A stretch of 64,000 nucleotides of DNA, from positions 2,914,001-2,978,000 of the forward strand of contig JAQJZZ010000011.1 in the NCBI GenBank assembly GCA_030077755.1, written 5' to 3'. The translations under genes were made by a program, and so were the position numbers. Below are positions 29,119-52,120 of the stretch, one piece after another. Origin of the DNA: Filosporella fistucella. Its lineage: Eukaryota > Ascomycota > Leotiomycetes > Helotiales. Below the pieces are notes generated by a model that was not told where the DNA came from, searched no databases, and saw only the letters and a program-made list of their open reading frames with translations. Position 1 is the stretch's first letter, and the number at the start of each line of letters is the position of its first letter.

Positions 29119-30880
29119 TCACTTTCCCAGCCCAGGCCATTCAACCCACTCCTCCACCATCCTCACACCCCCCTCCATCTGATTTTGTATATACAACAGC
29201 CTAGCTCTCCTCCTCTCACTATCCCATTCAATTTGCATACCCACCAATCTATTCCACCCCGGCACATCTTCCGACCTCGGAACTCCCTCTATCCCCAATC
29301 CTCCCTCCTCAATCTCCATGATCCTTTCCGCTAACCTTGCCGTAAGAAAACTATTCCATACCCCCTCTTGTCTATGTCCTTTCCTTAATAACTCAATCGC
29401 TCTCCTCCTTAAATGTCCATCACGACATGTGACTGCTACTGTAACTAGTGGCATAATGATTTCAGTGTCGAGGGTAAACCTAGGTTTATTCCTCTCTTCT
29501 AGATTAATAATTTCGTCGTTGAGGATACCTCCGACCTGTGATACGATAGCTGTATACTCGGGTAAATACTCATCCCAGGCCGTTAAATCAACAGCTACTC
29601 TAAATAGAGGGACACTCAATTGTATCCCATGTACAATTCTATGGATCTTTAATATCTTCACTGCTCTTCTATCGATATCTGTGAGACAATGATGGTTATG
29701 ATTTAAGAAGGAGGAAAGCGCTAGAGACCATTGTTTTAATCTCAAAGATGCAGCGCTGAATATCAGGTCTAGAGAGAGACGGGTGGTCGCTACGACCGCG
29801 GGAGGGAAAGAAGACATCGCTTGTGGTGTGGGAGGGAAGAATGGGAGAGTGTGGACGAGGGTGTCGGTTTGCGTGCGTATTGAGTCGAGGGCTGTGCGGG
29901 CTGAGGCGAGAGAAGGAAAGGAGAGTGGCATAGGAGCAAAGGAGTGTGGGTTTTGGCTTTCGAGAGTTGGTTTGCCTTGGAGGGAGGAAGGCTGTAAGTG
30001 TCGCCGGCGGGTGAGATCTAGTTGACTCGCTTGGATATCGAGACGGGCGAAGATTTCGTTGAGGAGAGGGAGAGGTACATATGGTGTTTGTGGGGGTGTA
30101 AGAGTAGTTGATGAGAGGTGAGATTGCGATTGTAGTTCTGTAACTATTTTTATACCGCCGTTGATGTGAGAGAGAGCTGTGTTGTGGTGTCCTCTTAATG
30201 TCTAGATCTCTTTTAACATCGAATTTCCGTATGAAAGGGAGAAGAGCTTACCTCGAAACATACAAATAATACACAAGTCATCAATGCCACATCCGCAGCT
30301 TGCTTTCCTTGCTCCCCAGGTTTCGTAAGTAGACTGATAGCCTTCACATATTCTTTCACTGAAAATTCTAATCTCTCATCTACTTCTCCTGGAACTCCAT
30401 GCTCGAAACATTCATGTAAAGCCCCTAACGCGAGAGCGGCATGCTGAATAGCTGGTTCATGATGGGTAGCGAGTAATAGTAAATGAGTCCAAAATGGGGA
30501 TGCGAAAGAGCCAGATAAGTTTGGGATGGTACGTATGTAGAAGTATTCAAAACATCGGCGTTCTTGATCTGTTTTTAGAAGAACAGAGTAATCGGTGGGA
30601 TTACGGAGTGGTAAAGAGGGGACAAGGCTCTTTTTATGTGGATAACCATCGCATTTTCGACGGCCGCGAAGACATTGTCCGCATGACGGTTCAGCCTCGT
30701 CGCATTTTATACGTCTGATCCTATTACACCAATTAACAGGTTTCTGTAAATCCAAGGGGCATCTTACCGACAGGTATTACACCCTGTAGAAGTCCTTTGC
30801 CGAACCACCTTCTTGCGTGTAGCTACAGATAACACAGATGTCGACTTGGGTCTAATCTGTAGTGCAGATTGAGTCGACAT
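29119..30880 (-). CDS. Zn2Cys6 fungal transcription factor
   Basis: Exons (minus): 30768-30880, 30252-30720, 29119-30201, giving 554 residues; introns of 47 and 50 bp. The ATG at 30880 is the first in frame. The zinc cluster is complete across the first intron: Cys34, 37, 44, 51, 54 and 61, with spacing C-x2-C-x6-C-x6-C-x2-C-x6-C, preceded by a basic stretch (RKKVVRQR). The rest is a helical middle region of the kind annotated as fungal-specific TF domain (LALGALHECFE, FVCFETLRGH). It is transcribed away from the MFS pump at 31647 across a shared ~770-bp promoter region. A role as regulator of the pump or the PKS cluster is inference from position. Confidence 0.9.
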
Positions 30881-31646: not shown

Positions 31647-33626
31647 ATGATTCCACCTACGAGCACCCCAAATATAAACCTGGGCGACGGATCACATGAC
31701 TCAGTCATTGATCAGGTGCCAGCAGAAGAAAGTGACCATGTGAACGAGAAAAAAGCTACACAAGAAGCGAAGAGCCCTGAAACAGACTTAGAAGTTGCAG
31801 TTGCTAGCGGAAACGATGAAAATATCCCACCAGCGCATCAATACGCAACCCCGAAAGAGCTGAGCCTCCTTTCGACAGCCTTCAGCATTGCAACATTTAT
31901 GATTGCCATAGATGGTAGCATTCTGTGTAAGTGTATAATCTTAGAATTTCTAAACCATTGCTAACTTTTACAGCGACCGCAATTCCTCGTATAACCAGCG
32001 ACTTTCATCGACTTGAAGATGTATCGTGGTATGGGAGTGCTTATCTCCTCACCGAGATGTCTTTCCAACCGACATTTGGCAGACTGTATACATTATTCGA
32101 TGCGAAATCACTTTATTTGATATCGATTATTATTTGTAAGCACTTTATACCAGGTCTTTAACAATTTAAACTTACTAAAAGTGTATTTTAGTCGAAGCAG
32201 GTTCTGTTCTATGTGCAGCTTCTCCCAATTCTGCGGCTCTGATTATTGGACGAGCTATCTCAGGAGCAGGTGCAGCCGGATTACTCTGCGGAAGTCTGAC
32301 TATCTTTGGAAGATCGGTGCCGCTGAAGAGAAGACCATTTGGAATGGCTCTCATCACCAGCATGTATGGAATTGCTGGAGTGATTGGACCTACTCTTGGT
32401 GGGGTCATCACAGACACACCTCGACTCACATGGCGGTTCTGCTTCTGGATGAATCTTCGTAGGCATTTTCCTGCTATCAAATGGCTTTACTGAAACTCTG
32501 TAGCTGCTGGTGCTTTAACATTTTTTATTGCTTACCGTACTTTCAAAACAAGGTCGCCTATCCATGGCAAACTTTCACTACTCGAGAAAGTAAAGAAGCT
32601 GGACCTTCTAGGAGCTTTCTTACTTACAGCAGGTCTAGTCGCACTGTTCATTGCATTACAATGGGGTGGAAGCAGATACCCTTGGTCGAATCCCAAGGTA
32701 TATGGCAGTGTTATTACATTTGGTGTTCTCATCATTGCTTTTGGCATCCTCCAGACTTACAAGAAAGAAGAGTGGGTTTTGTTTCGCCGAGAAGAACTTG
32801 GCCAGAGCTAATAAAAACCAGAGCTACAATACCGATGAGAATTCTCTCGCAAAGAACAGTGGCCATTAGCTGCATTTTCAATGTCCTCATGTCAATGGCT
32901 CAAAGCACTCACAACTATTATCTCGCTTTTTATTTCCAAGCCGTCCTTGGAACCAACGCTGCTATCTCCGGAGTCCGCAGTCTCGCATATGGAATTCCTG
33001 GCAGCGCCGCCATTCTCATCACAGGCGCATGTATCACATCCAAAGGCTACTACGTCCCCTTCGTCTGGTTCGGCACCAGTCTCTTCCTCCTCGGTAGCGT
33101 TCTCCTCCACACCATCACAATCAATTCTTCAGCCGCACAGTGGGCAGGCTACCAAGTCATCAGCGGATTTGGGTTCGGTCTCGCAGAACAAGTTCCCTTC
33201 ATCGCAGTCCAAGTCGTCCTTCCAGACGAGGATATGCCTCTTGCGTTCGCCATGGTGGTTTTCTCCCGCTGTCTGGGAGGAGCAGTGGGTCTCAGTGTCG
33301 CCACGAATGTGTTCTCGGGAGCGCTCCTCCCGAAGTTGGCTCAGATACAAGGGCTGGATGTAAGCAGTACGATAGCTGCAGGTGCATCGGGTCTGGCGGG
33401 TGCTGTTCCGTCGGCATTGCTCAGATTGGTGCGGGAAGCGTTCAATTATGCTGTTGTCAGGGCATTCGTAATGCCTATTGCGGTTGTGGCGATATCCTTG
33501 GTGCTTAGTTTTGGGTTGGAGAGGAAGAGGATTCCTGATGAGCCCGATCCTCAGAGTGGAGAAGAGAATTTGGCATCGTCTGATATTTCATTGGAACCTG
33601 TAGGAGAAGTAGAGAGGAAAGTGTAG
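31647..33626 (+). CDS. MFS multidrug efflux pump, DHA2 (14-TM) type
   Basis: Exons: 31647-31926, 31974-32135, 32192-32458, 32504-32771, 32822-33626, giving 593 residues; introns of 45-56 bp. An acidic hydrophilic N-terminus (~75 residues) precedes TM1 with the DHA2 hallmark AIDGSILSTAIPRI. Motif A is in loop 2-3 (GRLYTLFD). The antiporter motif C appears in TM5 (GIAGVIGPTLGGVI), followed by WRFCFWMNLP. About 14 hydrophobic helices are present and the tail is acidic. DHA2 pumps expel small molecules in exchange for protons at the plasma membrane. The proximity to the PKS suggests export of its product or self-protection (inference). It converges on the PKS gene with 354 bp between the stops. 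Confidence 0.92.
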
Positions 33627-33980: not shown

Positions 33981-36900
33981 TCAAGCTCCATCCAAAAGCT
34001 TCTTCATCGTCACCGAAGCGCGTTGTAAGCAGTTAGCCCACTGCTTCACCTCCTCCTTCCCAGTAATGACCGAGAAATGCGCCCTAAGAACGGTTAGTTC
34101 AAGTTTTATACACGGGAAAGTGTTGGCTTACCCATCATCTGTTACATAGTATGTCATCCAGAACCTCTTTGGATTCTGCATGATAAAGCAAGATTGAGGA
34201 GAGAGACCATCAGTATTGGAGAACATCTGATCTGGCTCCACAGTCGATTCGTACAAAGGATTCTTGAAAAGAGTTGGTAGATCTTCACCCTCTTGCGCAC
34301 ACAGCTCCATGGCTCGGAGGGTACGTTGATAACGGTGGCCCATAAGACCATCTTTGATTGTCTTGTTGCGATCATGGGCAGCCTCAACCATTGCCTGGAA
34401 TCTGGTGCTCACTGGTAAACTGTCATCATCTGCAATGGTGCAGAAACGCGCTGTGGTGGGAGTGTTGACTTGAACGATATCGGGACGGCCTTTGTGGTAA
34501 TGAGACATTGATATAGCTTCCCATGATCGAGCGTTGTAGCCGTAGAAGTAGTAATTTGCGAGTAAGGACATCAGATCGTAAATTCCCTTGATGGGCAGAT
34601 GCTTGTCCATCAGGATATCCTTGCCGAATTCCGTCAAATTGATATCTCTGTAGCCAACTCTCGTGATCTCATGCTTGAATCTTTGGCGGACCTCGAGTAC
34701 TCGGTCTTCGATTGCTGGTGTTGTCTTGATTACGAACTCCTTGGGTGCTTCAAGATGGCCATTTGAATGGCCATTGACTTGAACTGGCGGTTCGTAGCTC
34801 AGGATTCCTTCGACCAGTGCTGTCTGTAGCTTGGTGAGGGTCATTGCCTGTATCGGGTCAGCTTTCTGCAATATTGAGGGGCAATACACTATGAAGTAGA
34901 AGATTTTTGAAAAGGGCTTACATCAATCATGGTGTGCTCAACATAAGTTCCAGAAGTGGCATTCTGACAGACGACGAATGAGATCGATTTGTCAACCCAT
35001 CTGTTGAACCCCTCGAGCATCATCATGTCATAAATACGTCCCTCTGGATCTGCTGGCGCAGTGTCGTCGAGACAAACCGCAAATGCTGCAGCCTCAACCA
35101 TATCAATGGTCTCTTTATTGACTGCATCATAGTGGATCAAAGCATCACGAGTCTAAGATCATATTAGTCAGGAATCAAATTCCATTATGGATCAAACTTA
35201 CCTCAGCCCAAGAAGTTCGATCATCTGCACTCAAAATGCTTGTCCAGCTTTCACTGGTATCTTCTCGGTCGAGAATGGCTTGGAATATTTTGGTCAATTG
35301 TTCCAGTGCCACATTTTCATCGCCAACCTTGAGCATAACTTGGAAAATGTGTCCACGGTGAAGCACAGCCATGTAATCATTTCCAGGGAACTTTGCCATT
35401 CTATCGAGAGGCACACCTGGTAGACGTGCTGTATTGAAAATGTACTGCCAAAGATCGGTACAGTTGGGAGTGCCAAGATATGCCATAGGCTCCCATCGAT
35501 CAGCTTCAAGATCTTGCTTACATTTGAAGGCAATACTGGAGATGACTGCAGCTCGTTGTGCTTGGGTATGTTGAATGCTTCCAAGTGGGTGGAATGCCAT
35601 GAAGTTTGTGAAAGGTGCAAGAGGCATACGGCGTCCAAGATAGATACTTTCCAAGAAGTACTTGTCTTGCCAGTTTTCAATTTCAGGATTGTTGGCCTGC
35701 TCGGCAAGGCGATCGTAGAAAGTTCGACCGATGCTTCCTGGACGTTTGAATTCTACCACGTCACGCTTGAGGCTTTCGTACTCTTCCTCAGAGTGGAACA
35801 TCTTGGAATTCTCGAGGTAGTCATCGAACAGAGTGTCAAAATCCACAAGTGGGATCTTTGGAAGCACCTTTGAAGCTCGACAGCAGTGGAAGTCGTGATT
35901 GGCGACAACCACATCCTTAACCGGCTTACTGTTTGCTTCATTTCCAATCTCAACAACATCTGGCTCCTGGGCATTTGCTTCGGTTTCTTTAGACAGGATC
36001 TTTGATCTGGAGGCAATAAGCTTCCCCAAAGCCGCAATACATGGTGCATCGACGATTTCAGAAGTTTGAACTGCAACTTGGAACGTTCGTACGAGCCAAT
36101 TCTTCAGTTCGATGGCGACAAGAGAATCGATGCCGAATTCATCCAATGATACAGATGGACTGATATCTTCGAGAGAGCGAGCAGTGAATAAGGCAAATCG
36201 ATCGCAAATGGCATTGATTACAATGTTCTGGACTTCTTCCTCTGAGGTAGCTTGTTGCATCAATTTTGCCACGTCGACAGTAGCCTGCTCCTTGGTCTCG
36301 TTCTTCTCTTCGAGGTAAGGAATTTGTCCAAAGATGGGGTTGGCGAGGGCATATTCATCGTGGACAGCTATCATTGATTTTCGATCGAAACCAAGGATCA
36401 TCTCTTGAAGACCGTCCTTGCCTGCTTGTGGGCTCATGGAGTACTCCAGAACCTTGAATACCTCGTCGAAAGACATGAGAACTGATCCCTGTCGCATGAA
36501 TTCTTGTTGGGGAAGAGATAGCGACGTTATTGCCTCTGAACCATCAACGGCACCCAAATTGAGAGCGATGTAATTGCATTTGGATGTGGTCCTGCTCAGA
36601 GCAAGCGCATCTTGGAATGCATTACCGACAGCATAATTAGATTGACCGGTCTTTCCGAGAATGGAAGTAACGGATGAGAGCATGATGAAGAATTCGAGCG
36701 AATCTCCTCCAAACGCTTCATCCAGATGTTGAGTACCTTGAATCTTGGGCTTGACTGCGGTCATGTAGTCCTCAAGTCCCATTTGCTCAAACGGATGGTC
36801 CTAAAAAGAGTGAGTTAGTTTCTGTTTTTGACCAAGCAAACTTCTATTGTGAAAACTTACCCGAAGAACCATTCCTCCGTGGATTACTCCTCGCACAGGA

Positions 36901-39900
36901 GGCAGAGATGCAGAGCATGTAGCTGCAGCGGATTGGACAGTATCTCTGATGGTTATATCACAGCCAATGATATGGAGCTCTCCACCCAGATCGCGAATCT
37001 CTTTCTCCAAGGCACGTTGAAATGTTTCATCAAGCTTTCGGCGGGACAAAGTCACGATGTGTCCAGCGCCATGAGCGGCCAAGAATTTTGCAGTGCGTCG
37101 TCCCAGATCTCCAAGACCACCAGCAATGACATACGTCCCGTCTTTTCGGAGCTTCAACGGCTTTGGTCTCTCCAGGGTCAACTTTACCTTGGTCTCCTCT
37201 TCACAAACCACAACCACCTTACCCATATGCTTCCTGGATTGAATGAGACGGAATGCTTCTTCAATATCGCCCATTGGCATTGTGGTGATTGGCAACACGG
37301 GTTTGAGGATGCCTTGGTCAAATAGAGAGAGCACCTTTCCAAGTCTTTCTCGCATTTCATCAGGTTTGAGTTTTCCCAGAACTGTCAAATCAACAGCAGC
37401 GAATGTTACATTTCTGTCGAAGGGAACCATGCTGATCTCAGTCTTCTGGTAAATGTCTGCTTTTCCAATCTCGACGAAAGTTCCCAGGGGAGCCAGGATT
37501 GCGAAAGAATCGTGAAGTGATTCGCCTGACAAGGAGTTCAGGACACAGTCAACACCTTTGTTCCCGGTAAGTCGCAGAATACCTTGCTTGAAGGTTCGTA
37601 GCCTGGATGAGAAAATGTGACTCGGAGGAATGCCGAAGTGGTCAATAAGCTGTTGACGTTTTGCAGTACTACCGACCGTGCAGAAGATCTCAGCTCCGAT
37701 ATTTTGAGCTAGCTGGATAGCTGCTTGTCCAACTCCACCAGAGGCGGCGTGAATGAGAATGGTTTGGCCACGTTGAAGGCGAGCAACCTCTTCAATGCAG
37801 TAGTATGCTGTCGTGAAAATGACTGGGATAGAGGCTCCAACGGAATATGGCATCGAATCCGGGATTTGGTAACTGAAGTTTCCATCGACACGTGGAAAGC
37901 TTGAAAATGGCTCTGCACCGATACCGCAAACTCGGTCACCGACTTGGAATTTCCCAGTGAGCCCACTGCCTACTTTTCGAACAATACCAGAGCACTCTCC
38001 TGCCATAGTGACACCAGGGACCATCTGTCCCATTGCAATGAATACGTCTTTGAAATTGATACCGTGGGCTTTTGCCTCAAGCTCCAGATCAAACGGCCGC
38101 ATTTCCTTTGAAGGACGGTCATCGTCCACAAATCTGAGACTGCTCAGAAGTCCGGGTGTTTCAACCTCGAGTTTCAATGGTCTTTCAGCTTGATGGAATG
38201 GACCCGTCTCCATGGCTTGAGTATAGATTGTTCTCTTGATCCAGTCGTCAAATTTGCCATCAGCGTGAATTCTTGGAATGAGAAGTTGGTTGTTGCTGAA
38301 AGAGTACTCATCCTCATCGGATTTTGTCGCATCGTTAGCTGTCACGAAAGTCTTCGCGATGATATCGGAGAGGACTGCGATGAGTGCGGTAGAATCTGCG
38401 ATGCTCTGTTGTACATCAACAGTCACAAATCTCATGCCTTCGTTCTCTCGTCGGACAACACGAGCAAGACCATTCACCATACCCTTGACTGGGTTGTGAA
38501 GATCTGTAGAGCTTTCCTGAGTGCCAAGCCACAAGACGTTCTTTGCTTTGGTGACGAGCGAAACGATCTGGTGGTAGTTTTCTTCAGATGGTGCAATAAG
38601 AGCAGGTTCTAGCACATCATCAAGAACGATGTAGATCACGCTGAGATCAACTGGATTAGACGTCCATCTTCCCACAGAACATTGATAGCCCAATTTCTGC
38701 AAGTATGCTGACAGATTTTGCTGGAGAGATTGGTACCCCTCGGATTGAGATTGGCAGATGATCTCGACGGCAGGCAATGCTTCTTTGACAGGAATAGCTG
38801 GTGTCTCGATGGCTTTGGACACAATCATGGAGGAGCGTGCAGTTGGGCCCTCGTGATCAGGTGTTGCAACCTCCAAGCCATTGAATCCTTGTCGCTTCAA
38901 AGTTGCATCCCACTTAGGTTTTGACAGAAGAGGGCAATCCTCACGTCCATCTTCTGATGCCCACCATCCAGCTAAAGTGCCAAAGATGATGTTAATGTGA
39001 GCAGTCAATCTCGTTAACTCAATGAGAATAAGTCGTCCGCCTGGCTTCAACAATTTGCGAGAGTTTGCCACAGTTTCGTCGAGGTAGCTTGTTGCGTGCA
39101 AAACGTTGGAAGCAATAATAAGATCGTAGGTACCTTCTTCAAAGCCTTGTTGAACTGGATCTTTCGAAATATCAAGAGTCTTGAAGTCAATGCGCTCAAT
39201 CCATTGACTGAGCAGAGCTTTACCTTGCTCGAAGAATCCGGCGGAAATATCAGTGTAGCAGTAACGATCAAACAGAACACCTTCCTCACGGTCAAGGGAC
39301 TGGATCAACGGCAAGGTAGCTCCACCAGTTCCCGCTCCGATTTCCAAAATCTTCATGTGGGGGTGCTTGAAAGCGAGAAGTCTCAAATAATCGACACTCT
39401 GAGTGTAGTTGGGAACAATCAAACCCTGTGAATAGAAACGAGCCAATAGGTCATCTTCAAGCATGACTGAGAGAGAATCTTCCTCGCCGGACAGAATAGC
39501 TGGCAGGTTCTCTCCAATTCTGGTGAGCATTTGACCCTCAACTCCAGCTTCATATGTCTGCTTGAGGCAAGATGCGATCTCTTGCTCCGACATGTTGCCA
39601 ATAATCTTAGGGGATGTTTCTGCATCGTACTTCTCCATCCACGCCAATAATTTCTTCAAGTGAGGCTTCATTGAGTCTCGGTTGATTTCTTTGGTCTTTG
39701 CAAGGGCTGCATGTATGTAGAGTGTTGCGGCAACTTCATACAAAGCCATTTCCTCGCCTGCAGAGAGTGCTTTTTCAGGCGATGTCTCAGTGGACACGTC
39801 AACAGCTTCTTTGACTGCATCCAGGGTAGTCTCAATCTCGTGCTTTGGGATGAAGTCGACATCCGGTTGCCACTTGAACTTATAACTCATTTTGCGATTG

Positions 39901-42900
39901 AACGGAAGAGTACTCTCATCCGATGCTGCTTCACCAATTCCACGAAGGGCACCACCTCCGATTTGAATGATAGGTCTCAATGACCCATCTTCTTCGGACT
40001 GCTCAAAAACCATAGTTTCCATCATGGCAGATCTTGCAGCTTCTGACTTCATATTCGTGGCCACAACCCACTTGGTTCCCGGCTTGCAGCTGAGTCTACA
40101 GTCAATAGTGACATCCTCCATACCTGTGGGCATGACGGGACCGTTGCCGGTACTCCTTCGATACAAAGGCATGCCCAGATGTGAAATAGCGTCAAATGAA
40201 GCTGGATGGATCAAATGCGGTCGCTGAAATTTGGCAGGCATCACGCTCTCAATATTCGGCAAGGTGACCTGAGCTACACCAACGTATGGACCAATTTGAG
40301 CTGATTGAACGTTGGCGAACGTTGGGCCAAAGACGTTGCCATTTTCAGAGAAACTTTTGTAAAGATATTCGTTGTCGAATTCGCTGTCAGTGGCATCTAT
40401 CATGCTTTGCAGGCGTTCCAGTCGGTTCTCAACCATCATATCTTCTTCGCGGGAGCCTTCAACCTCGTCATTCTTTCCGGTCCACTCGGCCATCACGGAA
40501 CCTGAGCAATGCTCGGCCCAGACATCTTCTGAGGACAAGGCGAGAATACGGAAGGTCTCCCATGTACGATCTGTCAAACTTTTTCCAGGTTTGAATGTCA
40601 ACATGACCTCAACATCTGGTGTTAACCCATCTGGACGTCGCTCAGGAATAACGATCGCTTTCGAAAACGACACATTCTTGAGTAATATCTTGGACATAAC
40701 ACCGGGGATATTTCGATCGATGCTTATTTGTCGCACAGCTTCGATGACCATGCACAGGTATGCTGCTCCGGGATAGATGATGAAGCCATCAACCACGTGA
40801 TCTCTCAGCCATGGGAGACTGTCAATTCCAACCAGGTTTCTCCAAGCTGGTTCATGGTTTGTGGTTCCAATCATTCGCAGGCCCAAGAGGTCATGGGGCG
40901 GGTGTGGGCGGAAACGATGCTGTTTGCTGTAGTTTGATTCAAACCAATAAGTGTTGGAATGGTCCCAGGAATATGGAGTGAGGTCAGCGATGGTATGGGG
41001 TGGTTTGGTCTTGCTACTGTCGCCGAGTGACAGAGTAGCTCCAAGATCTACTGGATATCCGAATTCAAAGAGCTTTCCAGCCGTGTCCAATACCGATACG
41101 ATAGCATTGCGATCTCGCACAAGTGTCGGTAGGTAGTTGGCCTTGAATGCTGCCGAATCAAGACCTTTGATAACCTGCCTGACGGGACCTGCCAAGGCAC
41201 TGTGAGGACCAATCTCAGTGAAAAAGTTCACAGAAACAGCTCCTCCTGGAGCCACTGCAGCCATAAGTTCATTCCGGCAGATGAGTTCCAGAGCATTGCT
41301 GAATCGGACTGGGGAAACAAGATTGTCAACCCAATACTCAGCGTCGAAGTTGGCAGTCTTTTCAGCTACAACTACCGACGAGTAAAATTTGACTGATGGA
41401 TTTGGTGTTTTCGACTTGATGTGAGCAATGGACTGACGGTATTCTCCAGCGACCTTCTTCATGTGATGAGAGTGATATGCGGTATCAATCTTCAATTTGC
41501 GATTGAAAATTTGGGCCTCATCGAGTAGGAGTTTTAGCTCATCGATGGCAGACTCATCCCCTGAAACAGTCGTACTGACAGGAGAGTTGATACAAGCAGC
41601 CGAGACAAGACCCGTTCGTGTTTGGTCGATGTATTGTTTGACGTCCTCTTCGCCGAGGCCAACGGCCATCATGGCACCTTTGGTCGACATAACACGTGCG
41701 CAGGCTTTGGACATAAAACCTCGGTGGTATGAAATCTCCAATGCGGTCTTCTGGTCCAGAGCTTCTGCAGCATACGCTGCGGCGATCTCACCACTACTGT
41801 GGCCAAGAACGATATCTGGCAAGACGCCGAGGGCTTTTAGTAAGTCCACCAACGCAATTTGTATGGCAGTAGTAGATGGTTGAGAAATCTCAGCTTGGCC
41901 AACTCGCGAATCCTTTTCGTCTTCGGATAGCTCGCTGATCAGGCTCCAGTCTGCCCCAAGATCTTTCAGTATCCTGTCTGACTCAAGTATCGAGTCTCCG
42001 AAGATCTTCTGGGAATTCATGAGCTCTCGGCCCATGCCATACCACTGTGCACCTTGACCAGTGAAAAGAAATACGGAGCTGAAGCTGGTCGAAGATTTGG
42101 TTATACGTGGCTTCTGGTCCAGTGATGTGAGGAGATCTTCTGGGGTGGCAGCTGCCGTGCTGAAACGGAATTGCATTGGGGTTCGGCGACTTGACAGTGT
42201 GTATGCAAGGTCGCGGAAGTACGAAGAGCTGTCTTGAGCAGATACCCATTTCTGCAAATTCTCGACCATGTTCTGCAAAGATAATTCGGATCTTGCTGAG
42301 AGGACAAATAGCTCGGGGCTTGTTGGCACAGTAGATCCATTTTGAATCTTGACATCTGCAACTTGGGTTCCATTACTGCCATTGGTCTTCGACTCAGATG
42401 ATCCATTGACTTTGGAAGGAATGTCTGCAACATGCGTTCCATTTCTTCCGTTCGTCTTTACTTCAGAGGATCCGTTAACTTCCGAGGGTGTGTCTGCCAC
42501 GTGGACGCCATTGCTTCCATTGGTCTTGAGTTCAGAGGATCCGTTAGTCACGGGTGAGGCTTCCACCACATGGACTCCGTTGTGGCCGTTGGGTGTTGTT
42601 TCCGATGAACCATTAACCTTGAGAGAATGATCTTCCGCATGAAATCCGTTGGTTCCATTGGTTTTTGGTTCGGAAGACCCATTAGCCTTTGGAAGACTCT
42701 CCTTAGGAAGAACTTTGCCGTACGTAGTGGCAGATTCTAGAATGATATGGGCGTTCGTTCCACCATAACCAAACGAGTTGACAGAGACTCGTAATGGCCC
42801 ATTCGTTGGTAATGGAGTCATTTCTGTCGCAATCTGTCTTTCGCGTCAGTACAAGATGGGAGTGTCTTCCGGAAAGTCACATCGTACCTTGATTTTACGC

Positions 42901-44380
42901 TCATCAAGCAGCAAACTTGGCTTTGGCTTGATAAAGTCGATATTGGGAGGAATCATCCCACTTTTCAGCACCAATACGGCTTTCATGAGTCCAGCAACAC
43001 CACTGGATGCTTCAAGATGTCCAATATTTGACTTGATAGAGCCAACATAAAGTTCATCCTCACGTCCGGCTTCGGCGCAAAAGACTTGCGCGATAGACGA
43101 TATCTCGGCAGCGTCTCCTTTAAAGATGTCAGAGTTATCCTTATCAAGAGTTCAAAATACCCGTACCTGCTTGTGTTCCGGTTCCATGTGCCTCAACATA
43201 CCCGGTGTCCTTGGGATCGAGACCCGCAGTCTTGTACACACGTCGCATAAGACTGGCCTGAGCAAGAGGATTAGGTAGCGAGATACCTGCCGTCTTTCCA
43301 TCTTGATTCAGACCAGAATTCCTGATTATAGCGTGGACTGTGTCTCCATCCTTAATGGCATCGTCGAGTCGTTTCAGAACGAAACTAACAACGCCCTCGC
43401 CTCTTGCATAGCCTGATCCACGGCTATCGAAAACATAACACCTGCCATCTGGATTGGTCATTCTAAAAAGCCAGAATTAGCTCTACTAAACTTGAACCAG
43501 CTGCATAACAATCGGTTGATATTTGCGGGGTGGAGCTTATCTGCACGACTTGGTCATGTGATCATGTTCTACAAATATATGCAACCGAATATCTGGGTAA
43601 GTAAAAACATAGACTTACCCTACTTGACTCATGGGAATGATCTGATCGGGGGCTAATACTAATTGTGTCCCTGCCACAATAGCCATTTTGGCTTCTCGCG
43701 CTCGGAGTCCAAGGCAGGCCTCGTGTAACGCAACCATACTTCCGGAACATCCTGTGTCCACTGTACTTGAGGCACCCTTAAGATCGAATGCATAAGATAT
43801 TCTGTTGGACAAAATAGCAATTCCAGAACCGATCATGTGTAGCTTGGGTACTCTAGAGACATCTTTGTATCCCATACGTTCGAAACTGTTGACTTGTATT
43901 AGCTTTTAGGTCACTGGATAAAATGATGAAGTATAGGGAGGGAGGTTTTGATTCTGAAGGTGTGGAGTTAGTATGAACTTACTCTGTAGCATAAGCTCCG
44001 ACATGAACTGATGTGTCAGAGCCTTTGATACTCTGTAGTGTTTGTCCGGCATTCTCAAGGGCTTCATATGTTGTTTCCATCAAAATCCGTTGTTGGGGAT
44101 CAAGACATGATGCCTCATGAGGATGAACATTGAAGAAACGTGCATCAAAAGCACCAATATCTTGTGTCAAAAAGTAAAGACCTTTGACATTGAGGGCCTC
44201 CTTGGCTTCAGGGTCTGGGTGGTAGAATGAATCTTTATTCCATCGATCAGCTGGAATTTCACACCAGCCACTACGACCTTCAGAAAGCATATCCCATAGC
44301 TTGTCTGGGTTGTCTGAGCCGCCTGGTAAGCGACATGCCATGCCAATGATGGCAATAGGGGCAGGGCTTGGTTCTGCCAT
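33981..44380 (-). CDS. Highly reducing polyketide synthase with C-terminal carnitine-acyltransferase-type domain
   Basis: Exons (minus): 43983-44380, 43619-43885, 43167-43462, 42888-43117, 36861-42833, 35202-36800, 34922-35152, 34132-34865, 33981-34083. Phases close to 3276 residues. Domains: KS ~8-432 (triad Cys179 in DTGCSGS, His314 in EAHGTGT, His354); a 23-residue repeat linker ~447-560; AT ~570-960 (GQGAQ ~656, active Ser in GHSSGE ~743); DH ~1044-1340 (His ~1076, Asp ~1278); MT with EIGAGTGG ~1561; ER ~1950-2270 (AASGGVGQ ~2093); KR ~2297-2600 (SSV and NYAVGN); ACP ~2570-2650 (Ser ~2614 in GIDSL); acyltransferase ~2696-3276 (RWVDKSISF, catalytic His ~2994 in EHTMID). All reductive domains look intact, so a methylated, largely reduced chain is expected. 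From recall, the Trichoderma virens Tv6-931 enzyme has the same end domain and transfers its chain to polyalcohols reversibly. Confidence 0.95.
42345..42686 (-). repeat. 69-bp coding minisatellite in the PKS KS-AT linker
   Basis: Five head-to-tail copies of a 23-residue unit with consensus x-NGSSE-x-KTNG-x-NG-x-HVAD, for example [19 protein letters not shown], followed by a partial NGS. The copies differ at a few codons but keep length, except the last one, which is one codon shorter. The unit is multiple-of-three and lies between domains, so copy number could change without breaking the enzyme. Confidence 0.85.
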
Positions 44381-46569
44381 GACTGGATGTGAGAGGAAGG
44401 GGATGGGGATGACGTATAATGTAGGCGGAGAGGGAGGGAGTTAGGATTTGCAGTAGAATACCAGTATGACAGTCTGGAACTCCAGCATGAATATATAGAT
44501 TAAGATGCAGAATCGGTAGCGCTGGAGTGGAGATGTGAGGGGACTACACGACTTGATATGAAAAAAAAGTATATCCTACGCCTCAACCATACACGACGAG
44601 CTAGGCTTAGAATATTCTTAATCAGCTCTATTGGAATCCTGCGACCCTCGAATCTGGAGCAGCTCACAACTCGTGAGAGATAACGAAAGAAGTTCATCAA
44701 CAGCCGGAAGGTAGCTACCGCAGAAAGATACTATACTCACATCCTGGCCATCACAATCCTTCTCAGGGGTATCTGCACATCGCCAGCCTCGAATTGTAGA
44801 CGGAATTGATGCTACTCTGTGAATAACTCTTTTCCACTTGGATAAGAACGTCCTTTGCATCCTTCTGTGCAGAAAATTGCCGGAGCACGGGAGAATGATC
44901 CGTCATTGCTTGGATGTAGCACAATGGCTATGTCGATTACGAGTGAGATCAAAGAGCTTCAACTCGCGTCACTGCTTCAGTATGATAGATGGAGCTAAAA
45001 TTTGCAATCTGAGGCACTGGCGTCCAATACGCGTAAGTTACAGCTCTAGTACACAAAAAATACACGTGTAGTGATTATAGTCTAATTGTCTCCCATGCAG
45101 AGCTCGCTGCTACTAACCATGGTTCTGGTAACTCAGCCCCCGAGCTCATAAGCATTTGCCCGCAGAATAACATCAGCCTGGAGCTGCATGTCAGCTGGTA
45201 CAACTAGATATAGTAATTTAGTAATTTATCTTCTCAAAAAGGAAATGTGGGGTATATTTACATGCTAAACGACAGTTATATTCGATCCTGATATTGCGGC
45301 AAAAGTAGTCGCGAGATTACGTCGGAAGCGAGCTGGACCAACCCTGGGTGACCAAGGACCAGGTCAACAAAATGTCTGAATGTGGTAGATACGCATAGTG
45401 GTTAAATCCCTCTTGGGTAAGGCAGGATAGAAGGGCTACGTCTATAGCAGTGGAGACTGGTGATGAGATATCCCGTAATACACTGCTTGTAGACATCCAT
45501 GTAATTTGTACATTTCAGCCATCTTTCAAACCGTACAGAAAACTTTGTATGGCTATGCTAGCATGCGTATCTCTTGAATGTCGGATTTGACGATCCAATC
45601 ACAATAGCGCTGTCGTGAAGGACAATATCAAGCCTCTTCCGCGGTCCGATCCGTGAGGTGGTCGGATTTTAACCTTCCCGCAGGAGATAAGGCGACAACG
45701 CACACATTCCGGGTTGGAGTTGCAGCATGAAGGCAAGATAGAAAAGATATGTGTTGATGGTGTTGCTGTGATAAGGCACAGGCGTAATGTTTTTCCAGGT
45801 TGTGGCGAACCAAGATCTGGCGTGTTGTGTCGAAGCTTTACGGGCCTAACCATATTGAGCAGCCGAGAAGTGGATCCACTACGGCCCGGGGAACCGAGCG
45901 TGGGGAAAAGGGGGTTTGACATTGGCTTGGGTTTAGATCGTGGAGAAGAATACCTCCAGCTCCGCAAGGTAGAGTAAGAAGAGTTATCTTACATGAATAG
46001 TTTTGGTCATTTTGGGCCTACATGTCCCGTCTCATCAGCAACATCGGGATTGTTCATCAACGGACATTTCCATTGTCCGCCAATTGACTGGAAATGTAAT
46101 TATCCATAGACAAGAGATAGGCTGCTCGAGGCGACCGACCAGTAGGGTTGCGCTCCAACCGACTGCGCCGCAATAGTGCAGCTCGTGCTGTTTTATATGC
46201 AGCCTCATATGGGTAGACGAGCCAGATTTGCTGTGACTTGCATGACCCCAGGTTCCAGAAGGTTGACATTTTGAAGGGACCCGGCAGCGACCGCCTAAAT
46301 GTACTGATAGATTTGACCAGTCCCTCAACCGGGCAGTCTCTCTGTTCAGGAAGAGACGCCGAGAAAGTTCCTTTCCAACCGCTTAAATGTCTCAAAGACA
46401 TTTCATCCAGCCAGTCGTAACATAGCTCTCGAAAGTGCTTTCACAACCAACAGGTTGGTTTTTCACTTCCCAAGTACTTCAAATATTGATAACGAGAGGA
46501 ACTCCACCACGACAGGTTCTCTCTCCACAAACGCGAATTTCATACAGAGGCAGTTGTATCATTTTCAAG
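44381..46569. promoter_or_regulatory. Divergent region between PKS and RTA1 genes
   Basis: About 2.2 kb. A TATA-like element is on the minus strand at 44491-44498, ~111 bases upstream of the PKS ATG. Around 45600-45970 is a GC-richer patch with ORFs on both strands that resemble no family. No operator could be assigned confidently. Confidence 0.4.
44491..44498 (-). promoter_or_regulatory. Probable TATA element of the PKS gene
   Basis: The minus strand reads CTATATAT here, about 111 bases before the PKS start codon. The position is consistent with a core promoter followed by a 5' leader. Confidence 0.4.
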
Positions 46570-47703
46570 ATGGGCGTCCTTCCAGACGGAGCAGTCTACA
46601 TTCCAGGCTTTATTTGCACATTGTCGACGTGCAGTGTGAAAATCTGGGGCTATGTCAAATATCAGCCAAGTATCCCTGGAAATGCGATATTTTTGGTTTT
46701 GATCGATCTCATGGCTCTTGCTCAGCTTATTCTGGGGCCGTATCACCACACTGGACTCGTCTGCATATCGATGCTGTTTGGCCTGGCCTCGGAATCTACT
46801 GGTTATGTTGTACGATTATTGATCCATGGAAACCCGTTCAGCAGAGTATATTTCTTGATTCAGCTTGTGTGTCTATCGATCGGGCCCGTTTTCATTGCTG
46901 CTGCTGTTTACTTGAGCCTTGGGCGCATCGTGGTCGTCTATGGGGAGGGCATCAGTCGGATAAAGCCCAAATCTTACACCCTATTCTTCATGGCCTGCGA
47001 CGCTGTCAGCCTTATAATCCAAGCAATCGGAGGAGGAATCGCGGCTTCTTACCCACTCACCAATGACAAAATGGTTCGTTGCCTTCTGATTCAATTGATT
47101 TCTTCTGGCCTGGATATCCCTTCGAACTTTTACTGACTCTGGCAGATCAATCTTGGAACACATATCCTCATTGCTGGTCTCGCCTTCCAGGTTGCTAGTC
47201 TGTTTGCCTTCTCTGTTTGCAGTTTAGAATTTCTTTGGCGTGTGAGGAAGAGTCCCGAGTTGCGCAACCCCGACTTTATCGAGCTCACCAGCAGCAGAAG
47301 GTTCAAGTTATTCCTGGGCTGTATGTATTCATCATTAAGCATTTTTAATTGCGGGAGCTAACATTTCAAAACAGCACTTGGTCTCGCAACCACCTGCCTA
47401 TTTATTCGATGTGTTTTCCGATCTGTCGAGTTGAGTCAAGGGTTCTCTGGAAAGCTTGCAAATAACGAAGTCGAGTTCATGATCTTGGACGGAGTCATGG
47501 TGATCATTGCATCCGCCTGCATGACTATCATGCATCCTGGATATGCCTTTGGAAAGAGATGGAACGATGCAAGTTTCCCGTTCACGACTCCTAAAGCTGT
47601 TCCTCCTACAAGTGGAGAAGCAGATAGCCAGACTGTAGCTGCTGGAAGCTCAGATGGAGGAGAAAAGGCCGAGCCAAAGACAACTCATGCCACCGTAAAT
47701 TAA
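46570..47703 (+). CDS. RTA1-family (lipid-translocating exporter-like) membrane protein
   Basis: Exons: 46570-47073, 47146-47320, 47375-47703, giving 335 residues. About seven TM helices. RTA1 landmarks are ESTGYVVRLL, LSIGPVFIAAAVYLSLGR, the LIIQAIGGGIA block, and FIRCVFRSVELSQGF with the following EFMILDG near residue 265. The first intron uses an unusual GTTCGT donor, but the frame and family match demand it. RTA1-type proteins confer resistance to 7-aminocholesterol in yeast; other members are implicated in lipid flipping or sterol stress. It is divergent from the PKS, and a resistance or transport role for the cluster is inference. The hydrophilic C-terminus (Ser/Gly/Glu-rich) is typical of the family. 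Confidence 0.88.
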
Positions 47704-48558
47704 CGTCACTCAATATCCAATGAGCTGGATCGAAGCGAAGAGCTTTCTCAAGGAAGAGGGATTTTGCATTGGAGTTTGGAACATTTTGGCTCCCAAAGTA
47801 TATAAAATTGATTAATACGAAGTTTCAAGTCTGTTTGATTCAATCTTATTCTTGTGAATCTGATATGGATCTCAAATGGTAAAGGATAGACCTCAAGTGT
47901 CTGTACGATTTATGATTTTTCATCACATTTCCTTGCTCCGCTACATGCTCGCGATACCATAAACATTCACTGACCTTCACACAGAAGTCACTCATGCCCA
48001 GATAGTTTGTTGAGCATAGCCCCATTAATTTACCACCAAGCTCAGGTAATATGGGAACATGTTAGTATCGCGACATGGATCTTGGTCTACCGTCTACTCA
48101 ACACCCTTGTATACTAGCTTCTAGCACTTCAGCTACTTACTATTTACTAACCAGATCCACAGAACAGACAACAATGGTAACATGGCACCACAAAATACCC
48201 GGTCCGCTAACCCGTGCAGCACTAACTCCTTCCAGCAAACTTGACTTTGAGCCGATATCAATACTCAACGTCGGCCGCCAGCGTCAGCTTCACCTGCAGG
48301 TTAAACAGCTCAGATTCACATGCAGGGACATTAACCTGCAGAACACGAGGAAACCGTTACACTTCTGCATTATTCCAACGCTTCGGGAAGCTATGCCCCA
48401 TGTGTGCATGAACTGCGCCATGTTCTTGGGATTGCTTCTGTCATTATCTTGTAAGCATAGGTATCAGATATGCTCTGCTGCCTTTCTGATCGAGAAGCTA
48501 TCTCATTTCAAAGAGCTGATTGTGGTCAAACTCCCCAATTGAGAATTCAAAATCCAAG
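47704..48558. other. Intergenic region
   Basis: Contains one doubtful ORF (48075-48542) without recognisable features. It serves as the promoter side of the first oxidoreductase gene. Confidence 0.45.
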
Positions 48559-49860
48559 ATGAGTGTCAATGGTAAGATTTCGAATGGTATTCGAAAGGTT
48601 TTGAAGATAGGTATCATCGGCTTGGGAGAGGTCGCACAGGTAAGTCCACAAGTAAGTAAACTGGCGTAGAAATCTAACGCTTTCAAAATGATAGGTGTCC
48701 CATATCCTAGCGCTGAACAATCTCTCCGATTACTATCAAATCACCTATCTCTGCCACGCCTCCCAACAAGCTATCGAGCACTGCAGCAAGAATGTAGCTA
48801 TTGGGAATCCCAAGATAACTTCGAAAGCTGAAGAGCTCATCACATCGCCAGATGTAGACGTCATTCTTGTATGCGCTGTCAATGCTTTCCATCCTTCATA
48901 TGCCATCTTGGCACTTCAGCACAACAAATATGTGCTGGTTGAGAAGCCTCTTGCATTGAATTACAGAGATATTGATGCTATCATCGCTGCGGAGAAGGAA
49001 TCAGAAGCGAAGATATTCGTAGGTTATCAGAGAAGATATGCGGAAGCTTTCCTCGATGCATTGGAAGAGGTTGGAAGTATGGATACAATCGAGTATGTCC
49101 GAGTCAAAGGTACGCAGTCTGTCTAGCATTTGAGTCAATATACTTACTAGACAGATATCATTGGACCGAACCACGCATTCGTCAGCCAGTCAGGCACTTT
49201 CCCAAAGACATTCACAGACTTCCAAGAAGACGCCTCGAAAGAGATGCATGCTACAGAGGAGTCAATGGTAAAGGAAGCACTTGAGAATGACTGTGGAATT
49301 GAAGCTACAGAAGACTCCATGTCCATGTTTAGAATATTGACAGGGTCAGTCCCCTCCGTAGGGAAGCCAGGCAGTGCTAATATACATATAGGCTCGGCGT
49401 TCATGATCTATCTGCCATGCGGGAGTTGATTGGAATGCCCACAAAAGTTCTTGGTGCATCACTACAATGGTCTATCTGGAGCGTTTTATTCCAATACCAA
49501 GGATTCCCTGTTAACTACGAATCTGGAATCATCGATGTTCCCTCATTCGACGCACACATTGAAGTATATTCCAAGAACAAAATTGTGCGTGTCAACTATG
49601 ATACACCTTACGTCAAGGGTCTTCCAGTCACAATGACCATTCGAGAGAGAATTGATGGCAAGAAAGGAGACGGTTTCCAGGAGCGAACAATCAGGAAGAC
49701 ATATGAGGACCCATTCACTCTACAGTTTTTGGAATTTCATCGATGTGCGACAGGGGGCCTGCCGCCGAAGACGTCTGCGTTGGATGCGAGAGAAGACTTG
49801 GACCTGATTAAGATGATTATGCAGTCTGGGTTCCCAGGAAAAGCTCAACACAAGGTGTAA
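48559..49860 (+). CDS. Gfo/Idh/MocA-family oxidoreductase (first copy)
   Basis: Exons: 48559-48639, 48695-49109, 49155-49344, 49392-49860, giving 384 residues; introns of 45-55 bp. The N-terminal Rossmann fold has the dinucleotide motif IGIIGLGEVAQ near residue 20. The family signature appears as VDVILVCAVNAFHPSYA and VEKPLALN near residue 110. The C-terminal half is the alpha/beta substrate domain. Family members use NAD(P) to oxidise or reduce sugars, cyclitols and related polyols (for example inositol dehydrogenase and glucose-fructose oxidoreductase). Next to the PKS cluster it may act on a sugar or polyol moiety. This copy has three introns while its neighbour has none, so they are unlikely to be recent tandem duplicates. 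Confidence 0.88.
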
Positions 49861-50884
49861 AAGTTATGTGCATCATGAAAGTTCTCTTTAGCTTTATCTT
49901 GCTACAAATCTACAAAATGTGAAAATTTCTTTGAATACCTTCTCTGAAAATTTGTCGACCTATGCAGTCGTGACAGGGAGACAAGAGTGGATACTGTAGT
50001 GGTAATCTTACAAGCCCAGGGTTCTCCACATACCGTACTCATCCCTTGAAAATATTACCAACCGCTACAAAATACCATATTACCCGCCTTAGCCAGGTTT
50101 ACTAAAACCCTTGCCTGAACAACAAAATAGGATTGTAGGATTTACTTGGCAGTCTGACACCCTATTTAGTAAATGGCGTGCGGGACATGGGTGTACCTGC
50201 ATTGCATGTGGGCTAGTCACTGGCGGCAATGAGTAATATTTTGTGCCACCAGATGTCCTCTTGATAAGTTGCGCAAAAGATAAGGAAAGGCTCAATCTGA
50301 AAGTCGAATGATTGCGGGGAAACTCCACAGCTGGATAAATTTCGAATTTAAACTTGCGATTTGCTGCTTCGGATTCCCACTTGGTTCCTTCGCAGGGTCC
50401 TCAGTTGTAATTGGTCTGCTCGTGCTGCTCGTGCTATTACCTAAAGCTTACAACGCTTGTGTCGGATTGGGCTTGCACGTAAATCTCGACGGTTTTCAGT
50501 TCTGACATCCCGGAATATTGGTCCGAAGCTGTTTGCTGAAGGATTACAATGGCTAGGCCACCTTTCAACAATGCGGTCCGCGATTCCTTTTGGAATGTAG
50601 AGTACCGTTGCAATAGGATTTGGAGCAACGTCCACGTCGGACATATCGTCCAATTCTTCCATTGTCATCCTTTAGTCAATCGCGGGGCTACCATCAGCCA
50701 GAAAGCATTACGGATGAAGGGTGGTTTGAATCCTTCCAAAGCTCCAAAATGAGCCATATTAAGACAAGGGGCTTCAGGGTGGTGAAAAATTAATAGAGTG
50801 TCGAGTTGTCGGGCGCCCCAACACCACTCACTGAATTGTGTATCAGAACGAAAAAAAAAAACATCCACTCTCTTGAAACTTGCA
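49861..50884. other. Intergenic region between the two oxidoreductase genes
   Basis: No gene supported. A run of ten or more A lies about 20 bases before the ATG at 50885, in what is probably the 5' leader. Confidence 0.5.
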
Positions 50885-52120
50885 ATGGAGAACGACACGC
50901 CAACCAATAGAGTTAGCGGAGAGACTAATGGAAATGCTGTTGATCAACTTGAACCTACAATTACATCGCTGAATGAAGGCACGCAAAATGGACATTCATC
51001 TGCATCATGGAGAATCTACCTTTACGGAGCTGGTGCTATTGCATGTCACCATGCCGTTGCAGCTAAGACACTCAAAGACGTTCAAATATTCGCCGCCGAC
51101 CCCTCGAAGGCGGCTCGTGATAACTTCATCACGAGGTTCCCTCATGCCAAAGTATACGACAATGCCAAAGATATGCTTGAGAGTTCAACAGCTCAAGATC
51201 ACGATATAGTGATTGTGGCTGTACCATTATGGCTTCATCTACCAGCTACACTTGAAGCCTTCATCTCAAAACGCCACGTTCTCTGCGAGAAACCAGTAGC
51301 GCGATCAGAAGCCGAATTAGCTCAGATGCTAGCCGCAAGCCAGACTGCAAGCCGACACTTTCTGGAATGCAGCTTCCGATATCTAGGGAACGAAGCTTTG
51401 GATCGTGCGCGTCAACTTATTAAGACGGGTGGTATTGGTACTCCATATCATGCACGTCTTGTTAACCGCCAACCTCGTTCTCGCCCTGGTATCGAGTACC
51501 AGCCAGAAAGCAAATGGTTTCTGGACAAGGAGAAGGCTGGAGGAGGAGTGATCTTCGATTTCGGCGTGTATGACCTGACCATGCTTTTCGATGTCCTCAG
51601 ACCCGTGGCAGTCACTGTCCATCACGCATGGACAGCTACTCCACCAACAGCTACAGACCCTGCTGAACAGCCTATATCTGTAGAAACTCACGCTGGAGCC
51701 TCGATGACTTTGAGGCTGGAGAGTGGTGCAGTAGTGTCACTCGACTACGAGCGTGCTAGTGGCTTTCATGGCGAGAAACAGGTGATCCTAAATGTTGATG
51801 GTTCAGCGGGTGGTCTAACATGGCAGTGGGTCCCTACATTTGATGCTGATCTATCTGAAGAAGGGGCAGAAGATACTTTCAAGCTTGTGCATTATGTAGA
51901 TGTTGACGGCAGTGTTGTTGCAAAAGAGGAGGCTTTTCCTGCGTTTGGGTGGAACTCTGCGAATTGTCGTCCTTTGTTGTCATTTGTTGCTTTGCTTGAG
52001 GGTCGCGATAATGTAGCATTGTCTACAGCTCAGTTGGAGTTCAACTTTTCTGTACTTTCTGCGATTTATAAGTCTGCGTCTGAGGGTAAATCTGTATCTG
52101 TTCAACTTAAATCTAGCTAG
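50885..52120 (+). CDS. Gfo/Idh/MocA-family oxidoreductase (second copy, intronless)
   Basis: One exon from ATG 50885, 411 residues. The frame runs 29 codons further upstream, but without ATG. A polar ~45-residue N-terminus precedes the Rossmann fold (YLYGAGAIACHHAV), then IVIVAVPLWLHLPAT and VLCEKPVAR, the family signature. ECSFRYLGNEALDRAR and KAGGGVIFDFGVYDL are typical of the second half, where a His or Asp of the D-x-x-x-H pocket usually sits; here the visible pattern is GGGVIFDFGVYDL, with Tyr in the His-like place. Partner and substrate unknown. Together with the neighbouring enzyme it gives the cluster two different sugar/cyclitol-type dehydrogenases. Confidence 0.88.
   Translation: MENDTPTNRVSGETNGNAVDQLEPTITSLNEGTQNGHSSASWRIYLYGAGAIACHHAVAAKTLKDVQIFAADPSKAARDNFITRFPHAKVYDNAKDMLESSTAQDHDIVIVAVPLWLHLPATLEAFISKRHVLCEKPVARSEAELAQMLAASQTASRHFLECSFRYLGNEALDRARQLIKTGGIGTPYHARLVNRQPRSRPGIEYQPESKWFLDKEKAGGGVIFDFGVYDLTMLFDVLRPVAVTVHHAWTATPPTATDPAEQPISVETHAGASMTLRLESGAVVSLDYERASGFHGEKQVILNVDGSAGGLTWQWVPTFDADLSEEGAEDTFKLVHYVDVDGSVVAKEEAFPAFGWNSANCRPLLSFVALLEGRDNVALSTAQLEFNFSVLSAIYKSASEGKSVSVQLKSS

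What the first reader, a model, noticed from the sequence alone, without database searches (positions are those of the whole stretch)
33981..52120. HR-PKS with built-in carnitine-acyltransferase domain beside two sugar/cyclitol-type dehydrogenases
The PKS ends not in a thioesterase but in a carnitine/choline acyltransferase-type domain (~2696-3276, His in EHTMID). Few such PKSs have been studied; the recalled Tv6-931 example moves the chain onto polyalcohols. Here two distinct Gfo/Idh/MocA enzymes, an RTA1 protein, a DHA2 pump and a Zn2Cys6 regulator lie nearby. The combination suggests a methylated reduced polyketide ester of a sugar or polyol, with the dehydrogenases acting on the acceptor. 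I know of no described pathway with this gene set.
Basis: partly seen in the sequence, partly recalled or inferred. Interest (0 to 1): 0.82.

Follow-up and report, generated by a model that had tools for sequence, protein, structure and literature searches.

The report
Polyketide synthase with acceptor-modifying dehydrogenase pair
A fungal gene cluster, found again in other fungi, pairs a polyketide-making enzyme that seems to hand its product to a sugar-like alcohol with two sugar or cyclitol dehydrogenases that may make that alcohol, a combination I did not find described.

Summary
Window 33981-44380 (minus) encodes a 9-exon, 3276-aa highly reducing PKS ending in a complete carnitine-acyltransferase-type (cAT) domain (Pfam 329 bits). 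The cAT keeps the catalytic His (EHTMID) but has Trp and Pro where carnitine acyltransferases have Tyr452 and Thr465. Two different Gfo/Idh/MocA genes follow (GFO1 48559-49860, GFO2 50885-52120). Only this one of 32 KS loci in the genome has a GFO match within 50 kb. The PKS/RTA1, GFO1 and GFO2 promoters share CGGTCCG; the DHA2/regulator promoter lacks it. Best reading: the cAT offloads the chain onto a polyol or sugar that the GFO pair makes or epimerises. Acceptor and chain are unknown. Closest precedent: luteodienoside A (cAT plus glycosyltransferase, glucosyl-inositol acceptor). New variant of a known kind. 'Methylated' fits this copy, but 17 of 20 relatives lack the canonical MT motif. 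Against: five species show the GFO pair without a PKS row.

The parts
33981..44380 (-). HR-PKS gene, 9 exons (44380-43983, 43885-43619, 43462-43167, 43117-42888, 42833-36861, 36800-35202, 35152-34922, 34865-34132, 34083-33981), 3276 aa, KS-AT-DH-MT-ER-KR-ACP-cAT
   Evidence: splice model; Pfam; motifs
34023..35852 (-). region encoding the carnitine/choline acyltransferase-type (cAT) domain, residues about 2705-3263, introns included
   Evidence: PF00755 329 bits, profile 2-573/574; PDB relatives 1nm8 etc.
34934..34936 (-). codon of the catalytic His (residue 2994, EHTMID)
   Evidence: alignment to human carnitine acetyltransferase
46570..47703 (+). RTA1-family membrane protein, 3 exons, 335 aa, divergent from the PKS
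   Evidence: PF04479 239 bits
48559..49860 (+). GFO1, Gfo/Idh/MocA dehydrogenase, 4 exons, 383 aa
   Evidence: family and locus tags; structure of the Oculimacula orthologue P0038
50885..52120 (+). GFO2, Gfo/Idh/MocA dehydrogenase with C3-type C-terminal domain, 1 exon, 411 aa, no close paralogue found in this genome
   Evidence: structure
45642..45648 (.). CGGTCCG site in the PKS/RTA1 shared promoter
48200..48206 (.). CGGTCCG site upstream of GFO1
50574..50580 (.). CGGTCCG site upstream of GFO2
31647..33626 (+). DHA2-type MFS efflux pump, 5 exons, 593 aa; membership in the cluster not shown
29119..30880 (-). Zn2Cys6 regulator, 3 exons, 554 aa; membership in the cluster not shown

Best explanation
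A small biosynthetic cluster (PKS-cAT, GFO1, GFO2, probably RTA1). The HR-PKS builds a reduced polyketide (here with a canonical C-methyltransferase motif) on its ACP. The C-terminal cAT uses His2994 as general base to activate a hydroxyl of a polyol, cyclitol or sugar, which attacks the ACP thioester and leaves as the acyl ester. The two dehydrogenases act on the acceptor: GFO2 (Lys-Asp-Tyr type) oxidises one carbinol, and GFO1 reduces the ketone with another stereochemistry, or each oxidises a different position. Together they would supply a cyclitol or sugar that the cell does not otherwise hold. Shown: gene structures, motifs, change of two carnitine-binding residues, linkage over genera, shared promoter motif. 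Inferred: ester release, acceptor class, division of labour of the two dehydrogenases, RTA1 as membrane export or self-protection.
Confidence: 0.52

Rival explanations
1. The dehydrogenases tailor the product after release: cAT esterifies a common polyol or sugar (glucose, mannitol, myo-inositol) and GFO1/GFO2 then oxidise or epimerise the sugar part of the ester, as glycoside 3-dehydrogenases do.
For: GFO1's best PDB sequence hit, over its N-terminal domain only (residues 14-150), is DgpA, which acts on the sugar of C-glycosides (activity recalled); glycoside dehydrogenases and sulfoquinovosidases tie in the fold lists; fungal and metagenomic relatives of GFO2 are fused to a PF01261 isomerase-type barrel whose weak PDB hits (E 0.004) are sugar phosphate isomerase-like proteins.
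Against: The same lists tie with free-sugar and cyclitol dehydrogenases; no PF01261 match lies near this cluster and the fusion's barrel finds no match in this genome.
Confidence: 0.2
2. Aldonate route: GFO2 oxidises an aldose to the lactone/aldonic acid, which the cAT acylates, giving a khafrefungin-like aldonic-acid ester of a methylated chain.
For: GFO2 has a Lys-Asp-Tyr site, aligned to aldose-aldose oxidoreductase; weak NCBIfam hits include D-xylose 1-dehydrogenase (54.9 bits, cut-off 350); khafrefungin is a linear polyketide whose aldonic acid group matters for activity (PMC10669366 passages).
Against: Does not need two dehydrogenases; the family hits are far below cut-off; 17 of 20 close relatives lack the canonical MT motif while khafrefungin carries a methyl group that is essential for activity.
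Confidence: 0.1
3. The cAT only hydrolyses, or shuttles the chain for a second methylation, and the GFO genes serve a neighbouring sugar pathway.
For: MaPKS17a cAT hydrolyses and Tv6-931 cAT recaptures for gem-dimethylation (as told in PMC10901484); five species have the GFO pair without a PKS row.
Against: PKS-GFO tag spacing is constant over the genera where it can be read; a recapture role makes little sense in relatives without a canonical MT motif whose cAT is conserved; shared promoter motif.
Confidence: 0.13

Closest known systems
luteodienoside A cluster ltb (Aspergillus luteorubrus; PMC10901484)
   Same: HR-PKS with the same domain order and a C-terminal cAT; the cAT releases the chain onto a sugar-cyclitol supplied by a neighbouring gene
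   Different: Acceptor-making gene is a glycosyltransferase; the five genes listed include no Gfo/Idh/MocA gene; the LtbA sequence was not held here, so identity was not measured
Tv6-931 (Trichoderma virens; Hang et al. 2017, paper not held, known from PMC10901484 and PMC10512364)
   Same: HR-PKS-cAT; polyol nucleophiles accepted in vitro
   Different: No row named Trichoderma among the 35 of the cAT search. A T. virens GFO2 relative fused to PF01261 exists (P0189), but whether it lies beside Tv6-931 is unknown
sordarin PKS SdnO
   Same: HR-PKS-cAT in a glycoside pathway (PMC9146135 passage)
   Different: The two rows named SdnO are 36% identical in the cAT and keep Thr465; outside the 23-row group of the window in the cAT tree
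fusapyrone and rasfonin clusters (PMC10512364, PMC10290801)
   Same: cAT is in the legend of the PKS domain figures of both papers (passages); which PKS bears it was not seen
   Different: Fusapyrone: glycosyltransferase, P450, FSH hydrolase and a dehydrogenase of unstated family; rasfonin: three P450s, an O-acyltransferase and a trans-thioesterase; no Gfo/Idh/MocA gene named in the passages seen
IolG/IolW inositol dehydrogenase pair (Bacillus subtilis)
   Same: Two different dehydrogenases give net epimerisation of a cyclitol
   Different: Functional analogy only; 15-17% identity of GFO1's Oculimacula orthologue to YvaA in Foldseek (that YvaA is IolW is recalled, one search did not name it)

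Membership tests
HR-PKS with C-terminal cAT | KS-AT-DH-(MT)-ER-KR-ACP followed by full-length PF00755 domain in one protein | tested here: met
   (ACP by motif only; splice model without transcripts)
HR-PKS with C-terminal cAT | catalytic His of the cAT kept | tested here: met
   EHTMID, aligned to H343 of human CrAT
HR-PKS with C-terminal cAT | product released by transfer to an alcohol | not testable with these tools
   needs metabolite or enzyme data
true carnitine acyltransferase | Tyr452 and Thr465 that bind the carnitine carboxylate (roles and numbers recalled) | tested here: not met
   Trp and Pro in the window and in 20 of 20 close relatives; the genome's own CrAT at C12 has Tyr and Thr; Arg518 is kept
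ltb-type (luteodienoside) cluster | glycosyltransferase LtbB homologue beside the PKS | tested here: not met
   no glycosyltransferase among the genes modelled at 29119-52120; smaller ORFs there were not scanned
inositol 2-dehydrogenase (IolG) | NCBIfam TIGR04380 above cut-off (355 bits) | tested here: not met
   GFO1 85.1, GFO2 69.0 bits
inositol 2-dehydrogenase (IolG) | catalytic Lys97, Asp172, His176 | tested here: not met
   GFO1: Lys and His kept, Gly at the Asp position by spacing; GFO2: Lys136, Asp225, Tyr229 instead of His; triad from PMC9603128
Gfo/Idh/MocA oxidoreductases | PF01408 domain above cut-off and EKP motif | tested here: met
   77.7 and 46.4 bits, cut-off 24; EKP in both
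co-regulated cluster | co-expression of PKS, GFO1, GFO2, RTA1 | not tested
   no expression data; only a shared promoter motif

The most novel reading that the evidence does not exclude
A self-contained 'acceptor-forging' release system: a dehydrogenase pair makes a rare cyclitol or sugar isomer by oxidation and re-reduction, and the PKS's own cAT consumes it as the offloading nucleophile. The ester could mimic inositol phosphoceramide or its sugar head group, with the RTA1 protein (its family includes a sphingoid-base exporter; recalled) giving self-protection.
Probability: 0.17. Interest if true: 0.8.

Novelty: new variant of a known kind. Interest (0 to 1): 0.62.

Why it matters
cAT-terminated fungal PKSs are a little-studied release chemistry: PMC10901484 says that the T. 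virens product is unknown and that the cAT functions in the AF-toxin and sordarin clusters are unclear. A conserved pair of acceptor-type dehydrogenases next to the cAT makes the acceptor question directly testable. Relatives of the PKS occur in Agyrium (Lecanoromycetes), Xylogone, Fusarium, Colletotrichum and others, so one structure would inform many genomes.

Tried and rejected
GFO2 in prokaryote genomes: the one scan found a single 26%-identity locus in a Verrucomicrobia MAG; not informative. Plasmids: among the 15 rows shown, GFO2 at 25-28% and GFO1 at 33-37% identity, some GFO1 hits in Rhizobium beside a sugar ABC transporter; dropped as too distant. PF01261 partner: none of the 5 family matches in this genome lies near the cluster and the T. 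virens fusion's barrel had no match (an empty answer there shows little). NAD/NADP guess: GFO1 has His where most relatives have Asp in the nucleotide-binding loop; of 120 relatives aligned, 2 share the His, Oculimacula and Xylogone, so not used as evidence for a reductive role. Substrate from fold searches: rows tie; not used to name a substrate. CGG-pair motif search covered 32 patterns, set up after I had seen the sequence; at least one pattern in all three promoters came in 27 of 2000 shuffles, two or more in 1 of 2000; random real triples from outside the cluster, largely coding, gave two or more in 1.0% of 5000. Number of CGGWCCG sites in the window (5) is not unusual (23 of 100 shuffles). 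One 8-mer was shared by all four promoter regions (null mean 0.1) and was not pursued. Candidate known products were sought without a clear match: khafrefungin, TMC-151/roselipin of Clonostachys, inositol-ester polyketides. Rows dropped: P0026 and P0027 (cAT truncated, 38% covered) from the 20-row count and the cAT tree.
Full report
What is there. The window is part of contig C10 of a 45.8 Mb, 19-contig genome, fungal from its intron-bearing genes and nearest relatives. A spliced model of the minus strand from 44380 to 33981 gives 3276 aa in 9 exons with only a terminal stop. The expected motifs are present: KS, AT (PF00698), DH, MT, ER, KR, ACP (motif only) and a full-length Carn_acyltransf domain. 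Past a divergent RTA1 gene lie GFO1 (4 exons) and GFO2 (1 exon), both on the plus strand. They are different proteins. GFO1 belongs to a large family (1169 hits at 1e-60 or better; three paralogous loci at 42-54% identity here). GFO2 has a C3-type C-terminal domain and 104 hits at the same threshold, from a capped candidate list; its only other matches in this genome are at 29%.

Is the linkage real? Public gene names carry locus tags. In Agyrium rufum the PKS is MMC25_003337, GFO2 _003339, GFO1 _003340; in Fusarium duplospermum CEP54_011402, _011404, _011405; in F. zealandicum FZEAL_1454, _1452, _1451. F. euwallaceae (BHE90_002981, _002983) and F. lateritium (ACHAPT_011062, _011060) give PKS and GFO2; Cylindrodendrum gives PKS g4400 and GFO1 g4403. 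So the PKS-GFO2 step is 2 in 5 of 5 and the PKS-GFO1 step is 3 in 4 of 4 species where both tags are visible. Of the 20 PKS rows with cAT at 70-75% identity and at least 94% covered, 13 share the exact contig length with a GFO1 or GFO2 row (4 with both). The other seven (F. solani, F. ambrosium, F. decemcellulare, C. caudatum, C. eremochloae, C. godetiae, one short metagenome contig) cannot be judged, because rows are 90% clusters and GFO1 showed only its best 120. Against: in Xylogone the GFO2 row sits on another contig. Five species (Oculimacula, Clohesyomyces, Westerdykella, Sarocladium, Mariannaea) show the GFO pair on one contig length without a PKS row. In this genome 22 GFO matches and 32 KS loci were found, and only the window's KS has any GFO within 50 kb. 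Under uniform placement two within 20 kb has probability 2e-4 for a given KS and 0.006 for any of 32; with tandem GFO genes counted as one unit, 0.016 for a given KS.

Co-inheritance. Over 7 species sets (one of them two Emericellopsis species) pairwise identities of cAT track those of GFO1 (Spearman 0.93) and GFO2 (0.92) in 21 pairs, which are not independent. The cAT tree (quick, SH-aLRT) branches off Xylogone, then the window, then Agyrium, then Fusarium, Colletotrichum and others. The GFO2 tree (FastTree) has a 33-row clade (99) with the window beside Oculimacula; outside it lie fusions of GFO2 with a PF01261 barrel (Trichoderma, C. chrysophilum, unnamed) and a Rhizobium protein. Agyrium is a lecanoromycete and Oculimacula a leotiomycete; Clohesyomyces, a dothideomycete, lies within the group of Fusarium and Colletotrichum in the GFO2 tree. 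The order does not follow fungal classes, which hints at horizontal transfer (inference).

Regulation. The promoters of PKS/RTA1, GFO1 and GFO2 each hold CGGTCCG, an inverted CGG pair of the kind bound by Zn2Cys6 factors (recalled). The window has 5 such sites in all, 3 of them here (5 is itself not unusual, 23 of 100 shuffles). Two of 32 CGG-pair patterns occur in all three promoters; 1 of 2000 dinucleotide shuffles did as well, and 1.0% of 5000 random real triples. The DHA2/regulator promoter lacks the site. This supports a core of PKS, RTA1, GFO1 and GFO2 and does not support the pump and regulator.

The cAT domain. Aligned to human CrAT (residues printed) and the genome's own CrAT, the window keeps His343 (EHTMID) and Arg518, but has Trp for Tyr452, Ala for Ser454 and Pro for Thr465. 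The 20 close relatives have the same residues at these five places. The two SdnO-named rows have Trp and Thr. Roles of these residues in carnitine binding are recalled. A carnitine ester is therefore unlikely, while base catalysis remains possible.

The methyltransferase. The window has [15 protein letters not shown] is also in 3 of the 20 close rows (Xylogone, Cylindrodendrum, F. decemcellulare) and in some more distant rows such as Phialocephala; 17 of 20 lack it, one of them a fragment. The distance from the DH to the ER motif is 1020 residues in the window, 1013 in Agyrium and 849-863 in 18 of 20 rows, so among these rows the window alone has both full length and the canonical motif. Gene-model errors in relatives are possible. 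So methylation is a property of this copy, not of the family.

Mechanism. In luteodienoside A (parts 1-3 of 4 of PMC10901484 read) the cAT is needed to release the chain onto glucosyl-myo-inositol, supplied by the adjacent glycosyltransferase. Here two dehydrogenases stand in the place of the acceptor-supplying gene. A pair of such enzymes is known to epimerise a cyclitol: IolG and IolW turn myo- into scyllo-inositol (abstract start of PMC9768902; passages of PMC3176187). Hence the proposal that the pair prepares the acceptor and the cAT consumes it. The GFO2-PF01261 fusions of Trichoderma fit a role in sugar or cyclitol isomer chemistry. All steps past the gene structures are inference.

What is known. 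cAT-bearing PKSs are known as a group (synthaser, PMC8582187 passages; group R-IX in lichens, PMC9146135 passages). In the listings and passages seen, no paper joined a cAT PKS with Gfo/Idh/MocA genes (most subscription journals are not held, and no supplements were read). The finding is a new variant of a known kind.

Noticed in passing
genome G000:C14:29341-38415 (+), loci L003, L004: A second PKS-cAT in the same genome: KS matches end about 6.5 kb before a KR-ACP-cAT reading; no Gfo/Idh/MocA match within 50 kb.
   Followed up: partly
genome G000:C4:1045972-1048097: A PF01261 match next to a divergent Gfo/Idh/MocA match, the same pair of families that is fused in Trichoderma GFO2 relatives.
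   Followed up: no
P0189, P0190, P0193-P0195, P0199, P0200: Fusions of a PF01261 barrel with a GFO2-type dehydrogenase in Trichoderma, C. chrysophilum and unnamed sources.
   Followed up: partly
window, PKS residues about 430-570 (KS-AT linker): Linker made of near-repeats rich in Asn-Gly-Ser/Thr; several relatives have similar Asn-Gly-rich linkers.
   Followed up: no
window 59000-61620 (+): Multi-exon sugar porter (PF00083 on the one exon scanned) about 7 kb past GFO2, behind a DUF3425 gene at 55259-56407; could import an acceptor, untested.
   Followed up: partly
window GFO1, nucleotide-binding loop (ITYLCHAS): His replaces the Asp seen in most relatives at the cofactor-discriminating place; of 120 aligned relatives 2 share it, Oculimacula and Xylogone.
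   Followed up: partly
P0164: A 'Candidatus Bathyarchaeota' record on a 3.1 kb contig holds a 68%-identical GFO2, nested among fungi in the tree: likely fungal contamination.
   Followed up: partly
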